Below the pieces are notes generated by a model. The model ran no database searches, was not told the DNA's origin, and saw nothing but the letters and a program-made list of their open reading frames with translations. Made by a program: the position numbers and the translations under genes. Positions 2,059 to 53,155 of a DNA stretch of 64,000 bases are shown one piece after another; the stretch's first letter is position 1; each line of letters opens with the position of its first letter. This stretch comes from Candidatus Sphingomonas phytovorans (GTDB lineage: Bacteria > Pseudomonadota > Alphaproteobacteria > Sphingomonadales > Sphingomonadaceae): positions 1,676,501-1,740,500 of the forward strand of contig CP119314.1 in the NCBI GenBank assembly GCA_029202385.1. The letters run 5' to 3'.

Positions 2059-2124
2059 GACATCCCCACCTCTCGCAAGATATGCGACGGAAATATCGCA
2101 GCGTAAAGAAGGGTTTCGCAAAAA

Positions 2125-2502
2125 TGCCAGAGGGTCTGTAAGCCGGGTTCTGTCCACCCTTTTCAGGGATGGGCGACCATTCCTCTAGGCCGGCATTTGC
2201 ATGCCGGCTCAAGCAACCAACCCGGGCGACGGGCAGAAACGATGCCCCGGAACCGAAGTCCCATGCCGCCCCTATTCGGTCTTGCTCCCGGTGGGGTTTG
2301 CCGTGCCGCTCCTGTTACCAGTCGCGCGGTGCGCTCTTGCCGCACCCTTTCACCGTGGCGGGGCCGAAGCCTTCGCCGTCTGCTCTCTGTGGCACTTTCC
2401 CTGGGGTCGCCCCCGCCGGGCGTTACCCGGCACCGTCGTTTCGCGGAGCCCGGACTTTCCTCGGCACGCTGACGCGTGACGCGGCCGCCCGACCCTCTGG
2501 CA
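2125..2502 (-). ncRNA. rnpB: RNase P RNA (M1 RNA), bacterial type A
   Basis: Read on the minus strand, the region has the universal 5' block GAGGAAAGTCCGGGCTCC and the 3' block ACAGAACCCGGCTTAC. The two ends form a perfect 12-bp P1 stem: TGCCAGAGGGTC at 2491-2502 pairs with GACCCTCTGGCA at 2125-2136. The length of about 378 nt is normal. This is the catalytic RNA that trims the 5' leader of tRNA precursors. A T-run directly after P1 (TTTTTG) probably belongs to the terminator. Exact ends are set by P1 and may be off by a few bases. Confidence 0.95.
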
Positions 2503-2721: not shown

Positions 2722-5700
2722 GTGGTCAGCCAAATCAATCAACTTCATGGTGACAAAGTCTTGGAAGCCGATCTTCCCGTGAAAATATTCGCGCCCATCG
2801 CGCCCTCTCCCGCCTTGCGCGACGACGAACCCTATGCGCGCGACGAGCTCCTCCATGAGATGTTCGAGGCAAGCTACCGTCGGCATTTCTCCCGTACCGC
2901 CGTCCGCCTGCTGGGTGACAACCTGGAAAACAGCCGGCGTGCCGCGCTCAGCTACATGGAGTTGCACCAGCGGGCGTTGCGTTTCGCCCGGATGCTGCAG
3001 TCGATGGGCGTGCGACATGGCGATCGCGTCGTCCTCTGCCTTCCGCGCGGGCTCGACCAATATATGGCGATCCTCGGCACCCTGTGGTGCGGCGCCTGCT
3101 ACGTTCCGGTCGACTGGGCCTATCCGCAGGACCGGATCGACTACATCATCGAGGACAGCGGCGCCGTCCTAGTCGTCACGGAGACGGAACGCGCCGCGGC
3201 GATGCCGATCCGCAGCCTGTCCGTCGACGCCATGCTGGGCGACCTCGCCGCGCTGGAGGCTGACTCGCTCGGCAGGCACGAAACCGAGGCAAGCCCCGAC
3301 GATCTCGCCTATATCATCTACACCTCGGGCACGACCGGCAGGCCGAAGGGCGTGATGATCACGCACCGCAACGCCTGCCATCTGGTCCGGTCGGAGAGCG
3401 CCATCCTGGCGCTCGACGGCAAGGACCTCGTCTTCGGCGGCTTCAGCCTTGCGTTCGACATGTCGGTCGAGACGATGTGGAGCGCGTTCTTCGTCGGCGC
3501 TGAGCTGCTGGTCGCATCGGAAGCGCTGGCAAAGGCAGGGCCGGACATGGCGCTCGTGCTCGCGCGCGAGGCTGTGACGGTGTGGCATGTCGTGCCGTCG
3601 CTCCTCACCCTGGTCGATATCGACATGCCGGCGCTTCGCCTGCTGAATCTCGGCGGTGAGGCCTGTCCACCCGATCTCGTGGAACGATGGGCACGGCCGG
3701 GGCGGCGCATCCTCAATACCTATGGGCCGACCGAGACGACCGTCACCGCGACATGGACCGAGGTGCAGCCCGGGCGCCGGGTCACGATCGGACGGCCGCT
3801 ACCCGGCTACACCGCATGGATCGTCGACGAAGCGCTATGGCCGGTGGCGGCCGGTGCTGAAGGCGAACTCGTGATTGGCGGGCCTGGTGTCGGGGCAGGC
3901 TATGTCGGGCGGCCGGACCTGACGGCGGAAAAGTTCGTCCAGACCCCGTTCGAGGGCCCCGACGGCCAGACCGCGCTCATTTATCGCTCCGGCGACCTGG
4001 TTCGTCTCGACGCGGTCGGCGATATCGAATTCATCGGGCGAATCGATACCCAGGTGAAGATCCGGGGCTTTCGCGTCGAGCTCGCCGAGATCGAGGCTGT
4101 CCTCGCCGAAGACGCGGCCGTCGCGCAGGCCGTTGTCCATCTCTTCCGCGACGACGATGGTTCGGAATTCCTCGCGGCGTTCCTGGTGGCGCGCGCGAAC
4201 GCCCGGATCGACCTCGACGACGCCAAGGCCCGGGTCCGCGACCGGCTTCCCAATTATATGCGCCCGGCGGCCTATGAGATCCTGCCCTCGCTGCCGACCC
4301 TGCCTGCGTCGGGCAAAGTCGACCGCAAGGCACTTCAGCGTCCCGCCATGCTTGTGGACACGACGCGCGAGACGGTCGAGCCGGCAACCCCGCTTGAAGC
4401 CACGCTTCACGCGATCTGGAGCGAGTCGTTCGCCCCGCAGAAGGTTTCCGTTCTCGACGACATCTTCGAGGATCTGGGCGGCCATTCGCTGAAGGTCGCC
4501 CGTCTCGTTTCGGCCATCCGTACTGCCCCGGGGCTCGAGGGCGTCTCCATCCAGGACCTGTACGCTGCATCGAACATCCGCGCGCTGGCCACGCGGATAG
4601 GCAGCCAGGCACCCGTGGAGCAGGCCGAGGAGCTGCCGTTCCACAGGATCGTCGCCTGGAAGCGCTGGCTGTGCGGATTGGCCCAGACGATCGCGCTGAT
4701 CCCGATCTTCACGGTCGCCGGACTGCAATGGTTCTTCCCCTATCTCGCTTATACCCGAATGGCCGATCAGGTGGATCGGGTGACGGCGCTGTTGCTGAGC
4801 GGATTCAGCTTCGTCTTCATCCCCCCGCTGGCCATGATCGCGTCCGTCATCGTCAAATGGCTGGTGATCGGACGGTTCCGCGCGGGCGATTATCCGCTCT
4901 GGGGCAGCTATTATTTCCGCTGGTGGTTCGTTCGCCGCTTCTCCGAAGTGATCGCGACACCCTATCTCGCCGGCACGCCCATGATCCGCGTTTATTACCG
5001 GCTCCTTGGCGCGCGCGTCGGCACCGATGCCTTTATCGGACGCGGCAATATCGATGCGGCTGATCTGGTGACGATCGGCCCGCGGGCGATCATCAGCGAT
5101 TATGCCATGCTGGCAACCAGCTCGGTCGAGCGCGGGTTGCTGCGGCTTGGATCGGCCGAGATCGGCGCCGGCGCCTTTGTCGGATCGATGGCCGTGGTCG
5201 GTCGTGGATCCGTCCTGGAGGAAGGTTCCGTGCTTGAGGATCTGTCCGCCTTGCCCGTTGGCGCGCGCATCCCTGCGGGCGAACGCTGGGACGGATCGCC
5301 GGCCCAGCGGGTCGGTACCGTTTCACCGCTGGAGCCCGTCGCGCCGGTATCGGCGACCGGGCGCCTGCTGGTGAATATCGCGCTCATGCTGGCGGCCCTG
5401 ATCCTGCCGCTCGTCGCGATCCTGCCGATCGCGCCGGGCCTCGTCGCGATGATCGAAATCGACTGGCGCAGCGAAAGCTACACCTATCTCCTGATCTCGC
5501 CGGTACTGGCGACCACCTACGTGCTGCTGATGTGCGTGCTCACCGTCGCGGCCAAGCGGCTGATCCTGGGACGCGTGAAGCCCGGGCGCTACGCGACGGA
5601 CAGCTGGTTCTATGTTCGCTTCTGGTTCGTCCAGCAGATCAACGACCTCGCGCTCCGGCTGCTGCATCCGATCTATGCGACGCTCTATGTCGTGCCCTGG

Positions 5701-6762
5701 TACCGGGCGCTCGGCGTGAAGGTCGGGCGTCGTGCGGAGATTTCGACCGCGGCCGCGATCGTTCCCGACCTCGTCGATATCGGTGCCGAGAGCTTCATCG
5801 CCGACGCGGTATTGTTCGGCGCGGCGCGGGTCGAGCCGGGCGCGATCCGCCTGGCCCATACCCGTATCGGCCGACGGTCGTTCATCGGCAATTCGGCATT
5901 GCTGCCGACCGGCGCGACGATCGGCGACGGCGTGCTCATCGGCGTCCTGTCAAAGCCGCCCGAGGATGGCGGCGCGGAGCGCCCCGACGGGACCTGGTTC
6001 GGGTCGCCGCCGATTTCGCTGCCAGTTCGCCAGACGGTCGGGCTGTTCGACGAAGGCGCGCGCTTCAACCCCGGCCCGCGCCTGGTGATGACCCGCCTCG
6101 CGATCGAGGCAGTCCGCGTCACGCTGTCGCTCACGGTCTTCATCGCGCTGTTCAGCGTCCTGTTGTCGATCGTCGGCGAGCTCGACGACCTGCGCAACGG
6201 CGGGCTGCTGATCCTGATCGCCTTCCCCTTCCTCTATATCGGCTTCGCGCTCGCCTGCGGGCTGGCGGTGGTCCTGCTCAAATGGCTCGTCATGGGGGTC
6301 TACAAGCCGACCACCCAGCCCCTGTGGAGCACCTTTGTCTGGCGGACCGAGCTGGTGACGGCGACCTTCGAGAATCTCGCGGTGCCGAACCTGCTTGAAC
6401 CGTTGCGCGGCACGCCGTGGCTGCCCGCCTATCTTCGTCTTCTCGGCTGCCGCATCGGCAAGCGCTGCTATCTCGATACGACTGATCTCACCGAGCATGA
6501 TCTCGTCACGATCGGCGACGATGTCGCGCTCAACGATCTTTCAGGGCTTCAGACTCACCTGTTCGAGGACCGGGTCATGAAGGTCAGCGGCGTAACGGTA
6601 GGCGACCGGGCGTCGATCGGCTCCTACGCGATCGTGCTGTACGACGCCGATATCGGCGCTGATGCTCAGCTTGGCGATCTGTCGGTCATCATGAAGGGAG
6701 AGACCTTGCCTCCCGGCACATCCTGGGAAGGAGCCCCTGCCCGGCTTGCGCGATCGATCTGA
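2722..6762 (+). CDS. Pls/PosA-like non-ribosomal peptide synthetase, single module with three tandem membrane domains
   Basis: About 1346 residues from a GTG at 2722, chosen because GAGG lies 7 bases upstream; the frame is open further up but without a ribosome site. Order of parts: adenylation domain (A3 motif YTSGTTGRPKG near residue 197; YGPTETT; A10 motif with Lys532 in SGKVDRKAL), carrier domain (LGGHSL, phosphopantetheine Ser589), then three repeats of two membrane helices followed by a left-handed beta-helix-like hexapeptide domain (roughly 640-867, 890-1103, 1120-1346). There is no ordinary condensation or thioesterase domain. This is the architecture of epsilon-poly-lysine synthetase (Pls) and of the family with the NRPS terminal domain of unknown function (TIGR02353). 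It should load one amino acid and join it repeatedly at the membrane. My hand-read specificity residues are D, M, E, H, N, G, T, V, T, K; the acidic residue at position 239 suggests a basic substrate, but this is weak. The PPTase gene follows after 16 bp. Confidence 0.9.
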   Translation: MVSQINQLHGDKVLEADLPVKIFAPIAPSPALRDDEPYARDELLHEMFEASYRRHFSRTAVRLLGDNLENSRRAALSYMELHQRALRFARMLQSMGVRHGDRVVLCLPRGLDQYMAILGTLWCGACYVPVDWAYPQDRIDYIIEDSGAVLVVTETERAAAMPIRSLSVDAMLGDLAALEADSLGRHETEASPDDLAYIIYTSGTTGRPKGVMITHRNACHLVRSESAILALDGKDLVFGGFSLAFDMSVETMWSAFFVGAELLVASEALAKAGPDMALVLAREAVTVWHVVPSLLTLVDIDMPALRLLNLGGEACPPDLVERWARPGRRILNTYGPTETTVTATWTEVQPGRRVTIGRPLPGYTAWIVDEALWPVAAGAEGELVIGGPGVGAGYVGRPDLTAEKFVQTPFEGPDGQTALIYRSGDLVRLDAVGDIEFIGRIDTQVKIRGFRVELAEIEAVLAEDAAVAQAVVHLFRDDDGSEFLAAFLVARANARIDLDDAKARVRDRLPNYMRPAAYEILPSLPTLPASGKVDRKALQRPAMLVDTTRETVEPATPLEATLHAIWSESFAPQKVSVLDDIFEDLGGHSLKVARLVSAIRTAPGLEGVSIQDLYAASNIRALATRIGSQAPVEQAEELPFHRIVAWKRWLCGLAQTIALIPIFTVAGLQWFFPYLAYTRMADQVDRVTALLLSGFSFVFIPPLAMIASVIVKWLVIGRFRAGDYPLWGSYYFRWWFVRRFSEVIATPYLAGTPMIRVYYRLLGARVGTDAFIGRGNIDAADLVTIGPRAIISDYAMLATSSVERGLLRLGSAEIGAGAFVGSMAVVGRGSVLEEGSVLEDLSALPVGARIPAGERWDGSPAQRVGTVSPLEPVAPVSATGRLLVNIALMLAALILPLVAILPIAPGLVAMIEIDWRSESYTYLLISPVLATTYVLLMCVLTVAAKRLILGRVKPGRYATDSWFYVRFWFVQQINDLALRLLHPIYATLYVVPWYRALGVKVGRRAEISTAAAIVPDLVDIGAESFIADAVLFGAARVEPGAIRLAHTRIGRRSFIGNSALLPTGATIGDGVLIGVLSKPPEDGGAERPDGTWFGSPPISLPVRQTVGLFDEGARFNPGPRLVMTRLAIEAVRVTLSLTVFIALFSVLLSIVGELDDLRNGGLLILIAFPFLYIGFALACGLAVVLLKWLVMGVYKPTTQPLWSTFVWRTELVTATFENLAVPNLLEPLRGTPWLPAYLRLLGCRIGKRCYLDTTDLTEHDLVTIGDDVALNDLSGLQTHLFEDRVMKVSGVTVGDRASIGSYAIVLYDADIGADAQLGDLSVIMKGETLPPGTSWEGAPARLARSI

Positions 6763-6778
6763 GCCTGGCGATCCGACT

Positions 6779-7420
6779 ATGGCGACCTGGCTTTCCGATA
6801 CGCTGGATTCGTTGCCGCGCGCACCCGATGCGCCGGTCGCCTGGTCGGTCCGCCTCGACCGTCCCGCCACGCCGACGATGGTGGCCCGTGCCAGCCTGTT
6901 GCCGGATGACCTGACTGACCTCGCGAAACGGCCCGACGCCGGAATGCGCGGCCTGCGGCGGCGACTGGCCAGGCTGCTTGTCGCGACGGCAACCGGCGAG
7001 CATCCGGACCTGATACGGATCGAACGCTCGCGACTTGGTGCCCCCGTCGTCGTCGTCCCTGACGGCTGGCATATCAGCCTGGCGGGGCAATGGCCGTTCT
7101 GCGCCATAGCGCTCTCCCGCGCCCCGGTGGGCATCGATGTCGAACCGCTCGCCACGGCCGCCCTCCCCCTCGACCTGTTCACCGCTGCCGAGCACTCGGC
7201 TTTCAAGAACGAGGAGCCGATCGAGCGGCTGTTCCGATGGATCGCGAAGGAAGCGCATGCGAAGAGGCTGGGGCGCGCCAGCCTGGCCGATCCAGCCCGC
7301 ATCGAGACATGGCGATCGCACGGAGAACTGCTGGTCCGGTGTGCTGATGGCATCTCCCGCTGCGAAATCCGCATCCTGAACGACGCGGCGCACGCCCTGG
7401 CCATCGCGGCGGAAAGCTGA
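6779..7420 (+). CDS. 4'-phosphopantetheinyl transferase, Sfp/EntD type
   Basis: 213 residues from the ATG at 6779. The two signature motifs are present: GIDVE at residues 118-122, whose Asp and Glu bind magnesium, and WIAKEAHAK starting at Trp154, with the catalytic Glu158 and Lys. The enzyme moves phosphopantetheine from CoA to the Ser of carrier domains. The gene starts 16 bp after the Pls-like synthetase, so it very probably primes Ser589 of that protein, although it could also serve the XrtA-linked acyl carrier protein at 51395. A TTG start at 6746 overlapping the synthetase gene is possible but has poorer spacing. Confidence 0.9.
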   Translation: MATWLSDTLDSLPRAPDAPVAWSVRLDRPATPTMVARASLLPDDLTDLAKRPDAGMRGLRRRLARLLVATATGEHPDLIRIERSRLGAPVVVVPDGWHISLAGQWPFCAIALSRAPVGIDVEPLATAALPLDLFTAAEHSAFKNEEPIERLFRWIAKEAHAKRLGRASLADPARIETWRSHGELLVRCADGISRCEIRILNDAAHALAIAAES

Positions 7421-7465: not shown

Positions 7466-9223
7466 CTAGACCGATCCGCTCGGATCGATCATCGGCCCCG
7501 ACATCTCGCGCGATCCGGGTGCGCGAGTGAACGGCAGGGATCCGGTCTGCCGTTCGATCATGCGGTGGACGACCGGCGGTGCCGGCCCTTCGTGCAACGC
7601 CGCGAGGTCGGCGCTGTTGTCCGCATCCGCATGCGTGCGCCGCTGGTTGTGCCGTACATAATCAAGCCAGGTCGCCACATGATAGCGCTCGACCCAGAGC
7701 AGCGGATCGCCGAGATCGCGCAGCAGCGTCCAGTGCCGCGCGCCGTCGCGCCGGCGGATGCGGCTGCGTTCGCCCATGACTCGCAGGAAGGTGACGATGT
7801 CCTTCTGCGCGATCCTGTATTCGATCGTGATCACCACCGGGCCGCTGCGCGATTCGATCGGGACAACCGTCTCCGGCTCGGTCCATCGGCTGAGCGGATC
7901 GAGATTGAGCTGTTCCACCTGCGGCAGCGGGATCCGGAAGCCCAGCAGCGCGCCGGCGACCTGCACGGCCGCCGCGACGAGGAGGGCGGTGGATACCCCG
8001 TGGTCTTCCGCGATCACGCCGAACAGCCAGCTTCCGGCAGCCATGCCGCCAAAAGCCGTCATCTGGTAAAGCGCCAGGCCACGCGCCACGACCCAGCGCG
8101 GTGACGCCATCTGAACGGTCACGTTGAAGGTCGACAGGGACAGCACCCAGCCCGCGCCGGCCAGCATCAGCGCCGGGATGGTCGCGGCCATATAGGGGCT
8201 GGCAGCGGTCGCCGCCGCGCCAAGCGCGAGTGCGATCGCCCCGATCAGCACGATTCGTTCGTTGGATAGGCGCTGCCGCAGCCGGCCGCTCGCCAGCGCG
8301 CCACCCACCGCACCGATGCCGAAACCTCCGAGCAGCACGCCGAAGGTCAGCGCGCCGCCGCCCATCAGGTCGCGCGCGATGAGCGGCATCAGCGCCGGCA
8401 CCGCGCTCGCCGCCAGGCCGAAAAGGCAGGCGCGCACCATGACGACGCGCAGGTTGGGCGACATCGCGACGTAGCGCAGCCCCGCCCCCATCGCGACGCC
8501 GAGCCGCTCGCGCGGCAGCAGCCGCGGGGGGATTTCGGGTCGCCAGCGCGCGAGCACGACGATCAGCCCGACATAGCTCACCGCATTGGCCAGGAAGGCG
8601 GCCGCCGCCCCCGCCGCCGCGACGATCAACCCGCCGATCGCGGGGCCGACGCTGCGCGCGATGTTGAAGCCCATCGAGTTGAACGCGATTGCGCCGGGCA
8701 ACACCGGCCGGGGCACCATATCCCCCACCGAAGCCTGCCAGGCCGGCCCGTTGACCGCCGTGCCGCAGCCGATCAGGAAGGTGAAGCCGAGCAGCAGCCA
8801 GGGACTGAGCAACCCCAGCCAGGCACAGACGGCAAGCCCCGCCGATACGACCAGCATGAAGCTCTGCGCCCAGAGCATGACGAGCCGGCGGTCGAGATTG
8901 TCGGCAACCGCGCCGGCCCAGAGCGAAAGCAGCATGATCGGCAAGGTGGTCGATGCCTGCACCAGGGCGACGAATTGCGGGGAGCTGGCCAGCGACACCA
9001 TCATCCACGACGCACCGACCGATTGAATCAGGCCGCCGAAATTGGACGCGAGGTTGGCGATCCATACCTCGCGGAAGATCGGGATCGAGAAAGCCGAGGC
9101 TGGCCTGGCGGAGTCGGGCGCGGTGGCTGGCATGGCATGTCGTTGCGGCAAGCCGCCCGCGATGCCAAGCCTCGTCATGCCATAATCGCCGCTGATCTTC
9201 GAGCCGGAGGAGGCAGGTTTCAT
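7466..9223 (-). CDS. MFS transporter of the MFS_3 (transmembrane secretion effector) type, with C-terminal soluble domain
   Basis: 585 residues. The first 430 or so form about 12 hydrophobic helices with a loop rich in DNLDRR between helices 2 and 3, as in the EntS-like exporter group. Residues from about 460 to the end form a soluble domain (ITIEYRIAQKDIVTFLRVM, then RRDGARHW and WLDYVRHNQR), which matches the ferredoxin-like extension found on many MFS_3 proteins. It faces the synthetase/PPTase pair with a 45-bp gap and is a candidate exporter of their product (inference). The start is uncertain: internal ATGs at residues 16 (MTRLG) and 31 (MPATA) are alternatives, and no good ribosome site is seen. 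Confidence 0.82.
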   Translation of the reverse strand: MKPASSGSKISGDYGMTRLGIAGGLPQRHAMPATAPDSARPASAFSIPIFREVWIANLASNFGGLIQSVGASWMMVSLASSPQFVALVQASTTLPIMLLSLWAGAVADNLDRRLVMLWAQSFMLVVSAGLAVCAWLGLLSPWLLLGFTFLIGCGTAVNGPAWQASVGDMVPRPVLPGAIAFNSMGFNIARSVGPAIGGLIVAAAGAAAAFLANAVSYVGLIVVLARWRPEIPPRLLPRERLGVAMGAGLRYVAMSPNLRVVMVRACLFGLAASAVPALMPLIARDLMGGGALTFGVLLGGFGIGAVGGALASGRLRQRLSNERIVLIGAIALALGAAATAASPYMAATIPALMLAGAGWVLSLSTFNVTVQMASPRWVVARGLALYQMTAFGGMAAGSWLFGVIAEDHGVSTALLVAAAVQVAGALLGFRIPLPQVEQLNLDPLSRWTEPETVVPIESRSGPVVITIEYRIAQKDIVTFLRVMGERSRIRRRDGARHWTLLRDLGDPLLWVERYHVATWLDYVRHNQRRTHADADNSADLAALHEGPAPPVVHRMIERQTGSLPFTRAPGSREMSGPMIDPSGSV

Positions 9224-27326: not shown

Positions 27327-27333
27327 TCTGAGG

Positions 27334-27425
27334 GTGGGAGCCGGAACGACCCGCGGCGAAATCGTTGCGGCTGCTTCCTTCCGGATCTGACCGGGTTGGC
27401 GACGACCACGTCCGCCCGACTCCCG
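27334..27425 (-). ncRNA. ffs: Signal recognition particle RNA, small bacterial (4.5S) type
   Basis: On the minus strand the region has the apical SRP motif GTCAGATCCGGAAGGAAGC, with the GGAAGGAAGC loop recognised by Ffh. The ends pair: GGGAGTCGG at the 5' side with CCGGCTCCC at the 3' side (one G-U). Total length about 92 nt. It targets inner-membrane proteins with Ffh and FtsY. The position near dnaX-ybaB is common in alphaproteobacteria. Confidence 0.93.
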
Positions 27426-27466
27426 CGGGCCATATGGGGGAGCCGGGCGGACTGATCAAGCCCGCT

Positions 27467-48540: not shown

Positions 48541-49806
48541 CTATGGCGCGGAAGAGGTGAAGATTGCGTTAGGAGTATCCGGGCCACCCGCGAGTATCTG
48601 GCCCGGAAGCTCGTGCCCGAGAAAGGCGGCGGGGCTCGCCGACAGCCCATAGGCCCCCGCCATGAACACCGCGATGATGTCTCCTGGCTTCGCCGGGGGC
48701 AGCGAAACGCGATCGGCAAGCCGGTCGAGCGGCGTGCACAGGCACCCGACCACGCTGACCGTCTCCGTGACCTCGCCCGGCGTCGCGGTCGCGACCGACA
48801 CCGGATAGTTCCGCTTCACCACCGTGCCGAAATTGCCCGAGGCCGCCAGTTGATGATGCAACCCGCCATCCACGACAAGGAAGGTCTCGCCCCGGCTTTC
48901 CTTCCGGTCGATCACCCGGGTCAGATAGACACCAGCCTCGCCGACCAGCCATCGTCCCAGCTCTATGGCGAAGCGAGCGCCCTCCAGTGATGGCGGCAGC
49001 GATGCCATGCGCTCGCCCAGCGCCGTGCCGATCGCCTCGATGTCGAGCGGCTCCTCGCCCGCGAAATAGGGAATGCCGAACCCGCCACCGAGATTGACCA
49101 GCGGCGGCGTGACGCCGACCTCATCGGCCAGTCGCCCGGCCAGCGCCAGCGTCTCGGCCTGGGTCTCGATGATCGCCTGGGGATCGAGCGCCTGGGATCC
49201 GGCGAAGATATGAAAGCCGCGCCAGTCGGCCCCCGCCGCGACCAGCCGCTTCGCGATCGCCCCGGCGCGATCGGCGTCGATCCCGAAGGGTGATGCCCTG
49301 CCCCCCATGCGCATGCCGGATCCGCGCAGCTCGATCTCGGGATTGACGCGCACCGCGAGACGCGGCGTCACGCCAAGCCGTTCAGCCGCCATCAGCGCGC
49401 GGATCGCCTCACCCTCCGATTCCAGATTGAGCGTCACGCCTGCCTCGATCGCCGCGACGATCTCCCCGTCGCGCTTGCCGGGGCCGGCAAAGCTGATCGC
49501 GCTGCCCGGCTTCGCCGCCAGCGCCAGCGCCATCTCCCCCTTCGACGCGATATCAAGTCCATCGACCAGCGGCGCCATGGCGGCGATCAGCGGCGCGAAC
49601 GGATTGGCCTTGATCGCATAATGAATGTCGAGCCCCGCCGGCATCGCCGCGCGCAGCCGTGCGATCCGGGCGGTCACCACCGCGACATCATAGACGAACA
49701 GCGGCGTATCGCCCGCCGCCTCGATCCACGCCCCGGCCGTCTCGCCGGCTATCCGCAGCGGTCCGTCCCCACGGAATTCCGCCGGAATCGCGCCCATTGG
49801 CTTCAT
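48541..49806 (-). CDS. XrtA-associated PLP-dependent decarboxylase (TIGR03099)
   Basis: 421 residues from ATG 49806, overlapping the upstream ligase stop in ATGA. PLP Lys65 in HYAIKANP, ASKGEMALAL, LGGGFGIPYF, and the catalytic Cys region VVGCLCTPLD. The fold is that of diaminopimelate decarboxylase. In XrtA loci it lies with an acyl-CoA ligase and an acyl carrier protein and may load or make a modified amino acid for the polymer (inference). Confidence 0.92.
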   Translation of the reverse strand: MKPMGAIPAEFRGDGPLRIAGETAGAWIEAAGDTPLFVYDVAVVTARIARLRAAMPAGLDIHYAIKANPFAPLIAAMAPLVDGLDIASKGEMALALAAKPGSAISFAGPGKRDGEIVAAIEAGVTLNLESEGEAIRALMAAERLGVTPRLAVRVNPEIELRGSGMRMGGRASPFGIDADRAGAIAKRLVAAGADWRGFHIFAGSQALDPQAIIETQAETLALAGRLADEVGVTPPLVNLGGGFGIPYFAGEEPLDIEAIGTALGERMASLPPSLEGARFAIELGRWLVGEAGVYLTRVIDRKESRGETFLVVDGGLHHQLAASGNFGTVVKRNYPVSVATATPGEVTETVSVVGCLCTPLDRLADRVSLPPAKPGDIIAVFMAGAYGLSASPAAFLGHELPGQILAGGPDTPNAIFTSSAP

Positions 49807-51350
49807 GACGTCATCTCCGCCTTCAGGGCTGCGCGATCGAGCTTGCCATTGGCGTTCCGGGGCAAGGCGCCCCGCCATTCGTAGCGCGCGGGCTGCATGA
49901 AACTCGGCAATTCGCGCCGCAGGCGCTCCCTCAATCCCACTTCGGCAGCGACCGTATCGCCACTTGCCCGCGCCACCACCACGATCGCCTGCCCCAGCCG
50001 GGCATCGGGCACGCCGATCGCGACCGCCTCGATCGCCTCTCCCCCCGACAGCACGGCTTCCTCCACCTCGGTGGGACTGATCCGGTTGCCCGCGCTCTTG
50101 ATCATCTCGTCGTCACGTCCGACGAAACGGAACAGGCCGTCCCCGCCCTCGATCACCGTATCGCCCGACCATACGGCCATGCCGCGATGTTCGGCCCAGT
50201 GCGGCGCCGGCCGGAAGCGAAGCACGGTCCGCTCGGCATCCTGCCAATAGCCCTGCGCGACCAGCGGCCCGGCATGGACCAGTTCACCCGGCTCCCCCGG
50301 CGCGGCGCGCGATCCATCAGCCCGGACCGCCATCACCTCGGCAAAGGGGATTGCCCGACCGATCGCCTCGGGAAACGCATCGACCAGATCGGGCGCCAGA
50401 TAGGTGGAGCGGAACGCTTCGGTCAGCCCGTACATCGGATAGAGGTCGGCTTCCGGAAAACGCTGCCGCAATGCCCGGATCATTGTCGGCGTCAGCGCGC
50501 CGCCTGAATTGGTCAACCGTTTCAACCGAGCCGCGGTCTCGGCCGGCCATTCCGCCTCGAGCAACTGTACCCAGAGCGGCGGCACCCCGGCGAGTGTCGT
50601 CGCGCCGAACCGGTCGACTGCCTTGATGACGTCACGCGCGGTCAGATAGTCGAGCGGTGCGACGGATGCCCCCGCTGCCCAGGTGGAGAAAAGCTGGTTC
50701 TGACCATAGTCGAAGCTCAGCGGCAGCACGCCGAGCACCCGGTCGGCCGGCGACAGCTTGAGATAGTGCGCGACCGAGATCGCGCCGAGCCATAGGTTCG
50801 CGTGGCTGAGCATGACGCCCTTGGGCCGGCCCGTGGAACCTGAGGTGTAGAGGATCGCCGCTAGCGTATCGGTATCGGCTGAAGATGGCGGCATGACGTC
50901 ATCACTGACTGCCTCCTCCTCCAGCGCCAGCCTGCACCCGGCGGGAATGTCACCCGCTTCGAGCGAGGAGGCGCGCGCCGACTGAGTCACCAACAGGTCC
51001 GCCCCGCTATCGGCCAGGATATGCGCCACCTGCGCCCGCTTCAGCACTGGATTGATCGGCACATGGATCAGGCCGGCTCGGGGCGCTGCCATCGGCAGGA
51101 CACAGGCAAGGCGTGTCTTGGGCAGCCAGGAAGCAACGCGAGCGCCGGGTGACAATCCCAGTCCGGCCAGCCACCCCGCCACCGATCCCGTCAGCACCTC
51201 CAGCTCGGCGAAATCCAGGCTTCCCGCCCGGTCGACCAGCGCGACGTCGCCCGGGCTCCCGCGCAACGGCAGGGTATCGATGGGCTGCGGCATGGGATCG
51301 ATCATGCCCTCCTGATACGCATCGCGCACCTGCGCTGCCAAGGCCTGCAC
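49803..51350 (-). CDS. XrtA-associated acyl-CoA ligase (AMP-forming, TIGR03098)
   Basis: 515 residues from GTG 51350, chosen because GGAGG lies 8 bases upstream. AMP-binding signature ILYTSGSTGRPKGVMLSH, YGLTEAFRST, and the C-terminal Lys in PRNANGKLDRAAL. It activates a carboxylic acid and passes it to CoA or to the carrier protein encoded divergently 44 bp away. Confidence 0.93.
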   Translation of the reverse strand: MQALAAQVRDAYQEGMIDPMPQPIDTLPLRGSPGDVALVDRAGSLDFAELEVLTGSVAGWLAGLGLSPGARVASWLPKTRLACVLPMAAPRAGLIHVPINPVLKRAQVAHILADSGADLLVTQSARASSLEAGDIPAGCRLALEEEAVSDDVMPPSSADTDTLAAILYTSGSTGRPKGVMLSHANLWLGAISVAHYLKLSPADRVLGVLPLSFDYGQNQLFSTWAAGASVAPLDYLTARDVIKAVDRFGATTLAGVPPLWVQLLEAEWPAETAARLKRLTNSGGALTPTMIRALRQRFPEADLYPMYGLTEAFRSTYLAPDLVDAFPEAIGRAIPFAEVMAVRADGSRAAPGEPGELVHAGPLVAQGYWQDAERTVLRFRPAPHWAEHRGMAVWSGDTVIEGGDGLFRFVGRDDEMIKSAGNRISPTEVEEAVLSGGEAIEAVAIGVPDARLGQAIVVVARASGDTVAAEVGLRERLRRELPSFMQPARYEWRGALPRNANGKLDRAALKAEMTS

Positions 51351-51394
51351 TTGGCATCCCTCCCCCCATTCTCTAACGGCAGGGCCAACAGGGG

Positions 51395-51685
51395 ATGAAA
51401 CCGGGGTCCGCAGTGCTTCCTGACGACAATGCCGCAATCGATACCACAGTCCGCGCAGTGCTTCGCGATGTCCTTGGCCTGAGCGAGGAGCGCGTCGGCG
51501 CCTTCCGCAGCGAAACGCCGCTGTTCGGCGCCTTGCCCGAACTGGATTCGATGGCGGTGGCCGGCATGCTCACTGAACTGGAGGAACGCCTCGGCATCCT
51601 GATCGAGGATGACGAGGTCGATGGCGAGATGCTGGAGAGCTTCGGTTCCCTCGTCCGCTTTGCCGCCGCCAAGGCAAACCAGTGA
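51395..51685 (+). CDS. XrtA-associated acyl carrier protein (TIGR03096)
   Basis: 96 residues. Single carrier domain with phosphopantetheine Ser52 in PELDSMAVAGML and an acidic helix (EDDEVDGEMLESFGSLV). It should be loaded by the divergent ligase. The ATG at 51395 follows GGGG closely; a GTG at 51413 is possible. The Sfp-type transferase at 6779 could prime it. Confidence 0.9.
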   Translation: MKPGSAVLPDDNAAIDTTVRAVLRDVLGLSEERVGAFRSETPLFGALPELDSMAVAGMLTELEERLGILIEDDEVDGEMLESFGSLVRFAAAKANQ

Positions 51686-51695
51686 AGGTCACGCC

Positions 51696-52385
51696 TTGAT
51701 CGACCAGTACGACTGGCCCGGCGGGCGCGAGGCGATGCTGCGCTTCGGCCCCGCCAGTGGCCCAGTCGTGATCGCGGCGATGCCGTTGTTCGAGGAAGCC
51801 AACCGGACCCGGGCGTTCGTCGTCACCATATTGCGGGCTCTAGCCGAACGCGGGATCGCCAGCATGCTGCCCGATCTGCCGGGCACGGGCGAAAGTCTCA
51901 TCGAGACTGAGAATATCACCTTAAGCGATTGGACAAGCGCCCTTTCGTCGTTGACTTCCACCGTCGCCGACGAACGCGGCGCGGTCCATGGCATCGCCAT
52001 TCGCGGCGGCGCACTCATCGATGCCCCCTTCTCCACCCGCTGGCACTTCTCACCGGCCCCCGGCGAAAGTCTTGTCCGGGATCTGCTGCGGTCCCGCGCC
52101 GTCACCGGCAAGGACAATGCCCACGACGCGATCGAACTGTCCGGTCCGCCTGTCGAGCTTGCCGGCAACAGGCTTTCCCGCACGCTCCTCGCTCAACTCA
52201 AGGCAACCGTCCCTGACGGTAGCGCGCCTCTGCGCACCGTCCGTCTCGATACGGACGCCCTGCCCGCCGATCGCCAAATATCCGGGTCGCCGCTCTGGCG
52301 GCGCAGCGAGCCGGACAACGACCCCCGCCTTGCACGGCTCCTCGCCGACGATATCGCCGCCTGGATCGCCACATGCGGCGCCTGA
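51696..52385 (+). CDS. XrtA-associated hydrolase 2 (TIGR03101)
   Basis: 229 residues from TTG 51696 (GAAGG 8 bases upstream), 10 bp after the carrier gene. Alpha/beta-hydrolase-like start (GPVVIAAMPLFEEANRTRAF, GIASMLPDLPGTGES), but the nucleophile elbow reads AIRGGA, with no Ser, Cys or Asp in the usual place. It overlaps hydrolase 1 by 13 bases. The pair may release or edit the acyl group on the carrier protein. Confidence 0.85.
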   Translation: MIDQYDWPGGREAMLRFGPASGPVVIAAMPLFEEANRTRAFVVTILRALAERGIASMLPDLPGTGESLIETENITLSDWTSALSSLTSTVADERGAVHGIAIRGGALIDAPFSTRWHFSPAPGESLVRDLLRSRAVTGKDNAHDAIELSGPPVELAGNRLSRTLLAQLKATVPDGSAPLRTVRLDTDALPADRQISGSPLWRRSEPDNDPRLARLLADDIAAWIATCGA

Positions 52386-53155
52386 TCACCTTTCCCTGCG
52401 CCGGCGACAGGCTCGCCGCCACGCTGGATGAAGGCAACGCGACCACCGGCCTGCTGATCGTCTCCGGCGGCAACGAGATCCGCATCGGCGCGCATCGCGG
52501 CATGGCGCTTCTCGCCGCACGCCTCGCCGCTACCGGCACGCCGGTCCTGCGCTACGATCGCCGCGGCATCGGCGATTCCACCGGCAACAATAAAGGCTTC
52601 CTCGAATCAGCCCCGGACATCGCCGCCGCCGCAGCGACCCTCGTCGCCGAAACCGGCATCAGGCGCCTCGTCGCCTTCGGCAATTGCGACGCGGCGACCG
52701 CGCTTGCCCTGTTCCACGGCGTCGCCGGGATCGACTCGCTGATCCTCGCGAATCCCTGGGTGATCGAGGATAGCGACGACCTCCCCTCCGCCGCCGCGAT
52801 CCGCGCGCGCTACGCCCAAAAGCTGCGCGATCCGCGGGAAGTGCTGCGTCTGCTGCGTGGCGGCGTGAATATAACGAAGATCTTCGGTGGATTAAGAAAG
52901 ATATCTGCCGCAAAACCTCCGGTAGCGGACAGCCTCGCCAGTCGCCTGATCGCCGCGCTGGCAGCGAGCACGATCCCCATCACCATCCTGCTGGCAAAGC
53001 GCGACAACACCGCCATCGCCTTCCGCAAACAATGGAACGCGGTCCCGTCCGCCAACGTCGTGCTGCGGGACTACGACACCGACAGCCACAGCTTCGCCAC
53101 CAAGGCCGACAAGCAATGGCTATTCGACGAGATCGAGACTGCGCTCGAACGATAG
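52373..53155 (+). CDS. XrtA-associated hydrolase 1 (TIGR03100)
   Basis: 260 residues. LLIVSGGNEIRIGAHRGMAL, LRYDRRGIGDSTGNN, nucleophile elbow FGNCDAATA with Cys105, and DTDSHSFATK with the catalytic His. A Cys in the nucleophile place is usual in this family. Last gene of the plus-strand arm of the locus; a hairpin follows. Confidence 0.92.
   Translation: MRRLITFPCAGDRLAATLDEGNATTGLLIVSGGNEIRIGAHRGMALLAARLAATGTPVLRYDRRGIGDSTGNNKGFLESAPDIAAAAATLVAETGIRRLVAFGNCDAATALALFHGVAGIDSLILANPWVIEDSDDLPSAAAIRARYAQKLRDPREVLRLLRGGVNITKIFGGLRKISAAKPPVADSLASRLIAALAASTIPITILLAKRDNTAIAFRKQWNAVPSANVVLRDYDTDSHSFATKADKQWLFDEIETALER

What the first reader, a model, noticed from the sequence alone, without database searches (positions are those of the whole stretch)
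2722..7420. Pls-like single-module synthetase with its own phosphopantetheinyl transferase: candidate homo-poly(amino acid) system
The protein has adenylation, carrier and then three tandem units of two membrane helices plus a hexapeptide-repeat domain, with no classical condensation or thioesterase domain. This is the layout of epsilon-poly-L-lysine synthetase (Pls), best known from Streptomyces. A matching PPTase starts 16 bp downstream. In a sphingomonad the product is, to my knowledge, not described. The acidic residue in the substrate pocket (E at position 239 by hand alignment) hints at a cationic amino acid. A membrane-made isopeptide polymer would be a new surface or secreted compound for this group.
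Basis: partly seen in the sequence, partly recalled or inferred. Interest (0 to 1): 0.85.

Follow-up and report, generated by a model that had tools for sequence, protein, structure and literature searches.

The report
Sphingomonas enzyme for an ornithine polymer
This gene pair most likely makes a small positively charged polymer of the amino acid ornithine, using a one-module membrane enzyme of a kind already known from other bacteria; I found no report of its product in this group.

Summary
A 1346-codon gene (2722-6762) encodes adenylation, carrier and three [helix pair + left-handed beta-helix] units. Its C-terminal half matches TIGR02353 (Pls/PosA family) at 841.8 bits (cut-off 423.1), and a phosphopantetheinyl transferase (PPTase) gene starts 16 nt downstream. 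NCBI already names Sphingomonas relatives "Pls/PosA family": a new member of a known kind.

The closest characterised pocket is not Streptomyces Pls but Acinetobacter PosA (delta-poly-L-ornithine): DMEHNGTVTK here, DMEHNGTVSK there, so L-ornithine is predicted. The PPTase follows directly in 61 of 108 loci (at most 59 of 105 distinct) and is fused to the synthetase in one Acidobacteriota MAG.

The C-terminal half is modelled (pTM 0.89) as a fused pseudo-trimer of hexapeptide acyltransferases. Only unit 3 keeps the histidine (H1279) that aligns with LacA H115, in 104 of 105 rows (the other is truncated) across 19 pocket codes. I infer one amide-forming site.

An unreported lead: in the genus, 39 of 40 genomes with one GNAT acetyltransferase also have the synthetase, 37 within 1.5 kb. 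The window's genome lacks it.

Genes and pairing are shown; monomer, linkage, polymer and roles are inferred. The genus also holds two other pocket types.

The parts
2722..6762 (+). Pls/PosA-family single-module synthetase gene, 1346 codons (start GTG 2722; GTG 2779 also possible)
   Evidence: TIGR02353 841.8 bits
2872..4299 (+). adenylation domain; pocket D246 M247 E250 H289 N309 G311 T333 V341 T342 K532
   Evidence: PF00501 and PF13193; pocket read; eight published PosA residue numbers all lie 29 below ours
4405..4599 (+). carrier domain; phosphopantetheine serine S589 (LGGHS) at 4486-4488
   Evidence: PF00550; Ser in 105 of 105 aligned rows
4663..5316 (+). unit C1: membrane helix pair (648-719) then left-handed beta-helix repeat; no His at the position matching H1279
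5356..6036 (+). unit C2: membrane helix pair (879-953) then left-handed beta-helix repeat; no His at the position matching H1279; D1028 and N1057 in all 105 rows
6094..6747 (+). unit C3: membrane helix pair (1125-1195) then left-handed beta-helix repeat carrying Q1277-T-H1279..E1282..K1287; H1279 codon at 6556-6558
   Evidence: H1279 aligns with LacA H115
6779..7420 (+). 4'-phosphopantetheinyl transferase gene (ATG 6779; TTG 6746 in frame), with GIDVE and WIAKEA motifs
   Evidence: PF01648; significance of the two motifs recalled

Best explanation
The gene pair is a delta-poly-L-ornithine-type (cationic, isopeptide) homopolymer synthetase with its own activating enzyme. Steps: (1) the downstream PPTase converts S589 of the carrier to the holo form; (2) the adenylation domain activates L-ornithine, with D246 holding the alpha-amine and E250, T333 and T342 holding the side-chain amine, and loads it onto the carrier as a thioester; (3) the membrane-held C-terminal half, a fused pseudo-trimer of hexapeptide acyltransferases, transfers the ornithyl group to an amine of the growing chain; H1279 in the third unit is the general base and the only such residue left of three, which favours one site used repeatedly; (4) the chain is released without a thioesterase. 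In many relatives a GNAT acetyltransferase gene joins the pair and probably acetylates the polymer (self-protection or capping); the window's genome has no close copy. Shown by computation: gene, domains, pocket, family, PPTase and GNAT pairing, conservation of H1279; the fold is a confident model. Inferred from PosA and Pls: monomer, isopeptide linkage, polymerisation. Inferred only: role of H1279, single site, release, GNAT role, biology.
Confidence: 0.72

Rival explanations
1. Same kind of homopolymer synthetase, but the monomer is another diamino acid (lysine, 2,4-diaminobutyrate, a modified ornithine).
For: PosA itself activates lysine weakly, and the residue at position 2 tunes chain length (PMC10522769). 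Position 9 differs from PosA, and the pocket drifts in Caulobacterales relatives (DVEANGTGSK, DIECNGTVTK and others).
Against: Nine of ten code residues, including Met at the length-setting position, equal PosA; Lys enzymes have Ala and Dap/Dab enzymes Phe there (PMC10522769).
Confidence: 0.17
2. The enzyme does not polymerise: it transfers a single ornithyl group from the carrier to a membrane lipid, glycan or small amine, so the membrane half is an aminoacyl-lipid or aminoacyl-glycan transferase.
For: The C-terminal half is built from units like those of hexapeptide acyltransferases, which as a rule acylate small acceptors once (the rule is recalled), and it sits in the membrane; most family members are uncharacterised. 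One family member sits in a hybrid PKS-NRPS-lipid cluster (PMC13291983, passage).
Against: The family enzymes with known products listed in PMC10522769 make homopolymers; the conserved C-terminal residues are the same across 19 pocket codes, the exact PosA code among them.
Confidence: 0.08
3. The locus is a decaying or silent gene without a product.
For: Patchy occurrence: 51 of 295 genomes of the genus over the cut-off; the GNAT partner is missing here.
Against: Frame intact; the residues thought catalytic are kept; relatives of similar length are open across several phyla; the PPTase is still paired in the most similar strain (L001, 91.5% PPTase identity).
Confidence: 0.03

Closest known systems
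PosA, delta-poly-L-ornithine synthetase of Acinetobacter baumannii (PMC10522769; adenylation domain 8G95-8G98)
   Same: Adenylation, carrier and a C-terminal half with six membrane helices and three beta-helix units; 9 of 10 pocket residues, including D, M, E and T that contact ornithine; NCBI's family name
   Different: Position 9 is Thr, not Ser; posA is reported as a single-gene operon, here a PPTase gene follows; rows with the exact PosA code form another clade in my tree
Pls, epsilon-poly-L-lysine synthetase of Streptomyces (adenylation domain 7WEW)
   Same: Domain order, six membrane helices in three pairs, three tandem soluble domains, no C or TE domain
   Different: Ala at the chain-length position (per PMC10522769), here Met; the 7WEW chain scores 250.9 bits, the shorter PosA chain 309.8
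Hexapeptide acetyltransferases LacA and Maa
   Same: Fold of the C-terminal units; H1279 of unit C3 aligns with LacA H115. That Pls C1-C3 are 'related to acetyltransferase functions' is already in print (PMC8506220, passage)
   Different: Three units fused in one chain with membrane helix pairs, only one of the three with the His; donor presumably a carrier-bound aminoacyl thioester, not acetyl-CoA
Holophagaceae MAG synthetase (L060)
   Same: Same synthetase family, 44.7% identical
   Different: PPTase fused to its C-terminus; pocket DAESIGTVIK

Membership tests
Pls/PosA family (TIGR02353, antiSMASH class NAPAA) | C-terminal domain above the curated cut-off | tested here: met
   841.8 bits against 423.1
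Pls/PosA family (TIGR02353, antiSMASH class NAPAA) | single module: adenylation + carrier, no condensation or thioesterase domain | tested here: met
   PF00501, PF13193, PF00550; no C or TE family among the 5 Pfam families found
Pls/PosA family (TIGR02353, antiSMASH class NAPAA) | six membrane helices in three pairs alternating with three homologous soluble domains | tested here: met
   hydropathy, model, repeat-to-repeat hhalign
Pls/PosA family (TIGR02353, antiSMASH class NAPAA) | Asp and Glu at pocket positions 1 and 3 for a diamino substrate | tested here: met
   D246, E250
Pls/PosA family (TIGR02353, antiSMASH class NAPAA) | product is an isopeptide-linked homopolymer | not testable with these tools
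   needs enzyme assay
PosA subgroup (delta-poly-L-ornithine synthetases) | pocket DMEHNGTVSK | tested here: inconclusive
   9 of 10 identical, Ser to Thr at position 9
PosA subgroup (delta-poly-L-ornithine synthetases) | same clade as PosA | tested here: inconclusive
   window clade is separate from the four exact-code rows; deep supports 85-94 and long-branch warnings; PosA itself was not in the tree
PosA subgroup (delta-poly-L-ornithine synthetases) | activates L-ornithine | not testable with these tools
   needs enzyme assay
4'-phosphopantetheinyl transferase superfamily (downstream gene) | PF01648 above cut-off | tested here: met
   29.8 bits against 25
D-alanine ligase DltA (TIGR01734) | above curated cut-off | tested here: not met
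   211.9 bits against 559.85

The most novel reading that the evidence does not exclude
Sphingomonads and caulobacters carry a horizontally moving delta-poly-L-ornithine system, a new cationic polymer for Alphaproteobacteria, with a dedicated PPTase and, in many relatives though not in the window's genome, a dedicated GNAT enzyme that acetylates the polymer. Its polymerase is a fused pseudo-trimer of hexapeptide acyltransferases in which two of three ancestral active sites have died, leaving one (H1279 of unit C3) that makes every amide bond of the chain.
Probability: 0.45. Interest if true: 0.62.

Novelty: new member of a known kind. Interest (0 to 1): 0.45.

Why it matters
Cationic homopolymers of this family are antimicrobial or antifungal, yet the passages and listings that I saw report products from Actinomycetes, Acinetobacter and a fungus only. 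An intact gene with its own PPTase in culturable Sphingomonas makes the product directly testable. The single histidine kept in unit C3 offers a one-mutation test of how this condensation-domain-free polymerase works, which the papers I saw leave open, and the synthetase-bound GNAT points to a tailoring or self-protection step that I did not see described.

Tried and rejected
Considered and rejected: an ordinary NRPS fragment (no C or TE domain, full TIGR02353); DltA or acyl-CoA ligase (far below cut-offs). I first took the PPTase for the only fixed neighbour; checking the families with Pfam showed a GNAT gene as well, followed up. itself (70 loci; mechanical frames, one frame per place) splits real families and picks antisense frames. 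Other repeated families that I identified are a histidine kinase scattered at many places, regulators and others shared only by one group of near-identical Sphingomonas loci; not all were annotated. The convergent MFS_3 gene (7466-9223) recurs only in L001 among those 70 loci, so I do not assign it to the system.

The LacA/Maa comparison used a two-sequence profile; its H115-H1279 match is one alignment and was not checked in coordinates, as model coordinates are not readable here. That H115 is the catalytic base of LacA, and that such enzymes place their sites between units, is recalled. Kito et al. [quoted passage not shown] Foldseek TM-scores by query length are 0.08-0.17 in the 50 rows shown, each match covering about one unit. 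The library of predicted cellular structures was not available.

Rows dropped: L047, L050, L051 and L055 (fragments) before the 105-row alignment; L025, L057 and L063 also before the tree, and rows over 90% identical (77 left). One search kept 79 loci for 191 relatives found, best first, so codes lean to close kin. One search scored 8000 candidates and listed 120 of 4709. The Fisher value ignores shared descent and physical linkage.

Full report
WHAT IS THERE. The frame 2722-6762 (+) is open for 1346 codons. It carries an AMP-binding domain (51-394 and 456-526), a carrier domain (562-626) and TIGR02353 'Pls/PosA family non-ribosomal peptide synthetase' over 654-1340 with 841.8 bits, E 4.1e-253, cut-off 423.1. 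The adenylation-domain model TIGR01733 also passes its cut-off (429 against 317.4 bits). No condensation or thioesterase family is among the five Pfam hits. The second gene (ATG 6779 or TTG 6746, to 7420) matches PF01648 at 29.8 bits (cut-off 25) and no NCBIfam model. By the sequence the gap between stop and ATG is 16 nt, as reported. Upstream, on the other strand, lies the RNase P RNA (2123-2500), so the synthetase gene probably starts its own transcription unit.

WHO HAS IT. The best named relative, in Sphingomonas sp. QA11, is 98.7% identical. In the window's genus 51 of 295 genomes have a hit over the TIGR02353 cut-off and 57 of 295 a hit at E <= 1e-100; in a sample of the family 5 of 199 over the cut-off, the window's own genome counted; in a sample of the phylum 26 of 398. 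The scan of genome contigs gave 191 relatives, 79 loci kept, from Sphingomonadaceae and Caulobacteraceae out to Bacteroidota, Lentisphaerota, Verrucomicrobiota, Planctomycetota and others at about 38-50% identity. In the tree (77 rows, quick method, long-branch warnings) Caulobacter vibrioides OR37 and Aureimonas ureilytica fall inside a clade of sphingomonads (supports 90-100), which points to horizontal transfer. The protein search listed 120 of 4709 relatives, and NCBI's name 'Pls/PosA family non-ribosomal peptide synthetase' stands on several Sphingomonas entries. A survey of Sphingomonas gene clusters has the class NAPAA in a figure legend (PMC9716278, passages seen). So the gene type is already on record in this genus; what I did not find in searches is any product from it.

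MONOMER. Patel and Gulick (PMC10522769; [quoted passage not shown] D217 and E221 are essential, T304 and S313 hold the side-chain amine, M218 limits length (Ala in Lys enzymes, Phe in Dap/Dab enzymes). The window reads DMEHNGTVTK at 246, 247, 250, 289, 309, 311, 333, 341, 342, 532. The eight PosA residues with a published number (217, 218, 221, 260, 280, 304, 312, 313) lie exactly 29 below ours, so the register of the pocket is not in doubt; the PosA chain printed shows the same motifs. The code DMEHNGTVTK stands in 52 of 78 readable rows (80 rows, two without the domain), and the exact PosA code in four rows from other Pseudomonadota (L091, L092, L094, L098), of which L091 hits the PosA structure at 543.9 bits. 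I therefore predict L-ornithine, with position 9 (Thr for Ser, hydroxyl kept) as the main uncertainty.

THE PPTASE. With an iterated profile, a PPTase frame on the same strand ends 300-1000 nt past the synthetase stop in 61 of 108 loci; in 11 more a hit lies elsewhere near by or, in L060, inside the synthetase frame; 33 have none in the stretch held; 3 ended too early (at least three loci are duplicates, see Tried and rejected). In L060 (Holophagaceae MAG) PF01648 lies at 1563-1649 of the synthetase itself (50 bits). Pairing plus fusion is good evidence that this PPTase serves this carrier. It is not the genome's only one: PF01648 has three matches, one of them about 5 kb from a 3209-residue frame with two carriers at another locus.

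A THIRD GENE IN RELATIVES. While checking this report I found that a GNAT acetyltransferase gene (about 176 residues; Acetyltransf_1 above its cut-off, no NCBIfam model) lies 548-737 nt past the synthetase stop, behind the PPTase, in 24 of 108 loci, the Sphingomonas melonis/aurantiaca side of the tree (in L026 it is broken into two frames). A profile of it also hits, at E 1e-32 to 1e-35, a frame 3-75 nt behind the synthetase in 5 loci with the distant pocket DFEALGTVTK (L088-L090, L093, L095), and one 8.3 kb upstream in L006. Over the genus, the protein has matches in 49 of 295 genomes at E <= 1e-10; 40 are strong (E <= 1e-50), and 39 of these 40 have the synthetase over its cut-off, 37 within 1.5 kb and the other two 5.7 and 10.8 kb away (Fisher 8e-37, ignoring descent and linkage). 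The exception, G259, is 78% complete. Twelve synthetase genomes lack the strong GNAT, the window's own and its same-species genome among them, and of the nine genomes with only weak matches none is listed with the synthetase. I infer that this enzyme acts on the product or its monomer, most likely by acetylating free amines, for self-protection or capping. I saw no mention of such a partner: PosA is described as a single-gene operon, and 'acetylat' and 'self-resistance' do not occur in two reviews on epsilon-polylysine (PMC8506220, PMC9205021; term look-ups only).

RIVALS AND VERDICT. A different diamino monomer is possible (about 0.17); single ornithyl transfer to a lipid or glycan is less likely because the family enzymes with known products make homopolymers; a dead gene is unlikely.

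Noticed in passing
L014-L016, L018-L024, L026-L029, L032, L036, L037, L043-L045, L050, L052, L059, L062 (downstream of the PPTase); L088-L090, L093, L095 (behind the synthetase): A GNAT acetyltransferase gene follows the synthetase (and PPTase) in 24 of 108 loci, and a distant relative in 5 loci of another pocket type; in the genus 39 of 40 genomes with the strong GNAT match have the synthetase. Absent from the window's genome at E <= 1e-10.
   Followed up: partly
L108-L111 (G217, G073, G102, G240), L112 (G202): A second, divergent synthetase type in the window's genus, in six genomes at 363-384 bits, below the TIGR02353 cut-off; five were read. Four carry the pocket DSECYGGVTK, the code of the Bdellovibrionales enzyme reported to activate L-arginine (PMC10522769); L112 has DSETYGGVTK. 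Possible arginine-type products, missed by the curated cut-off.
   Followed up: partly
L113 (second copy in G157): A third type in the genus, pocket DLEDIGSVVK, close to the 'DLEDIGTV' group of unknown substrate named in PMC10522769; the same genome also has a close relative of the window's gene (L114).
   Followed up: partly
L033, L034, L035, L039, L058, L067, L070, L096: Relatives, mostly Caulobacterales, in which the pocket has drifted (DVEANGTGSK, DIEADGTVAK, DVECNGTVTK, DVEFNGTVAK and others), suggesting a change of monomer inside one clade.
   Followed up: no
L060:2273-7300: Synthetase and PPTase fused in one 1675-residue frame in a Holophagaceae MAG.
   Followed up: partly
window 2123-2500 (-): Class A RNase P RNA gene upstream of the synthetase on the other strand (294 bits).
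   Followed up: no
window 27330-27427 (-): Bacterial small signal recognition particle RNA, 55.4 bits.
   Followed up: no
window 48541-53155: Exosortase A-associated genes: decarboxylase (TIGR03099), AMP-forming ligase (TIGR03098) and hydrolase (TIGR03100), with a carrier-domain hit at 51446-51655.
   Followed up: partly
G000:C1 4256542-4274059: A separate locus of the same genome with several carrier domains (frames of 3209, 1178 and 1189 residues) and its own PPTase.
   Followed up: no
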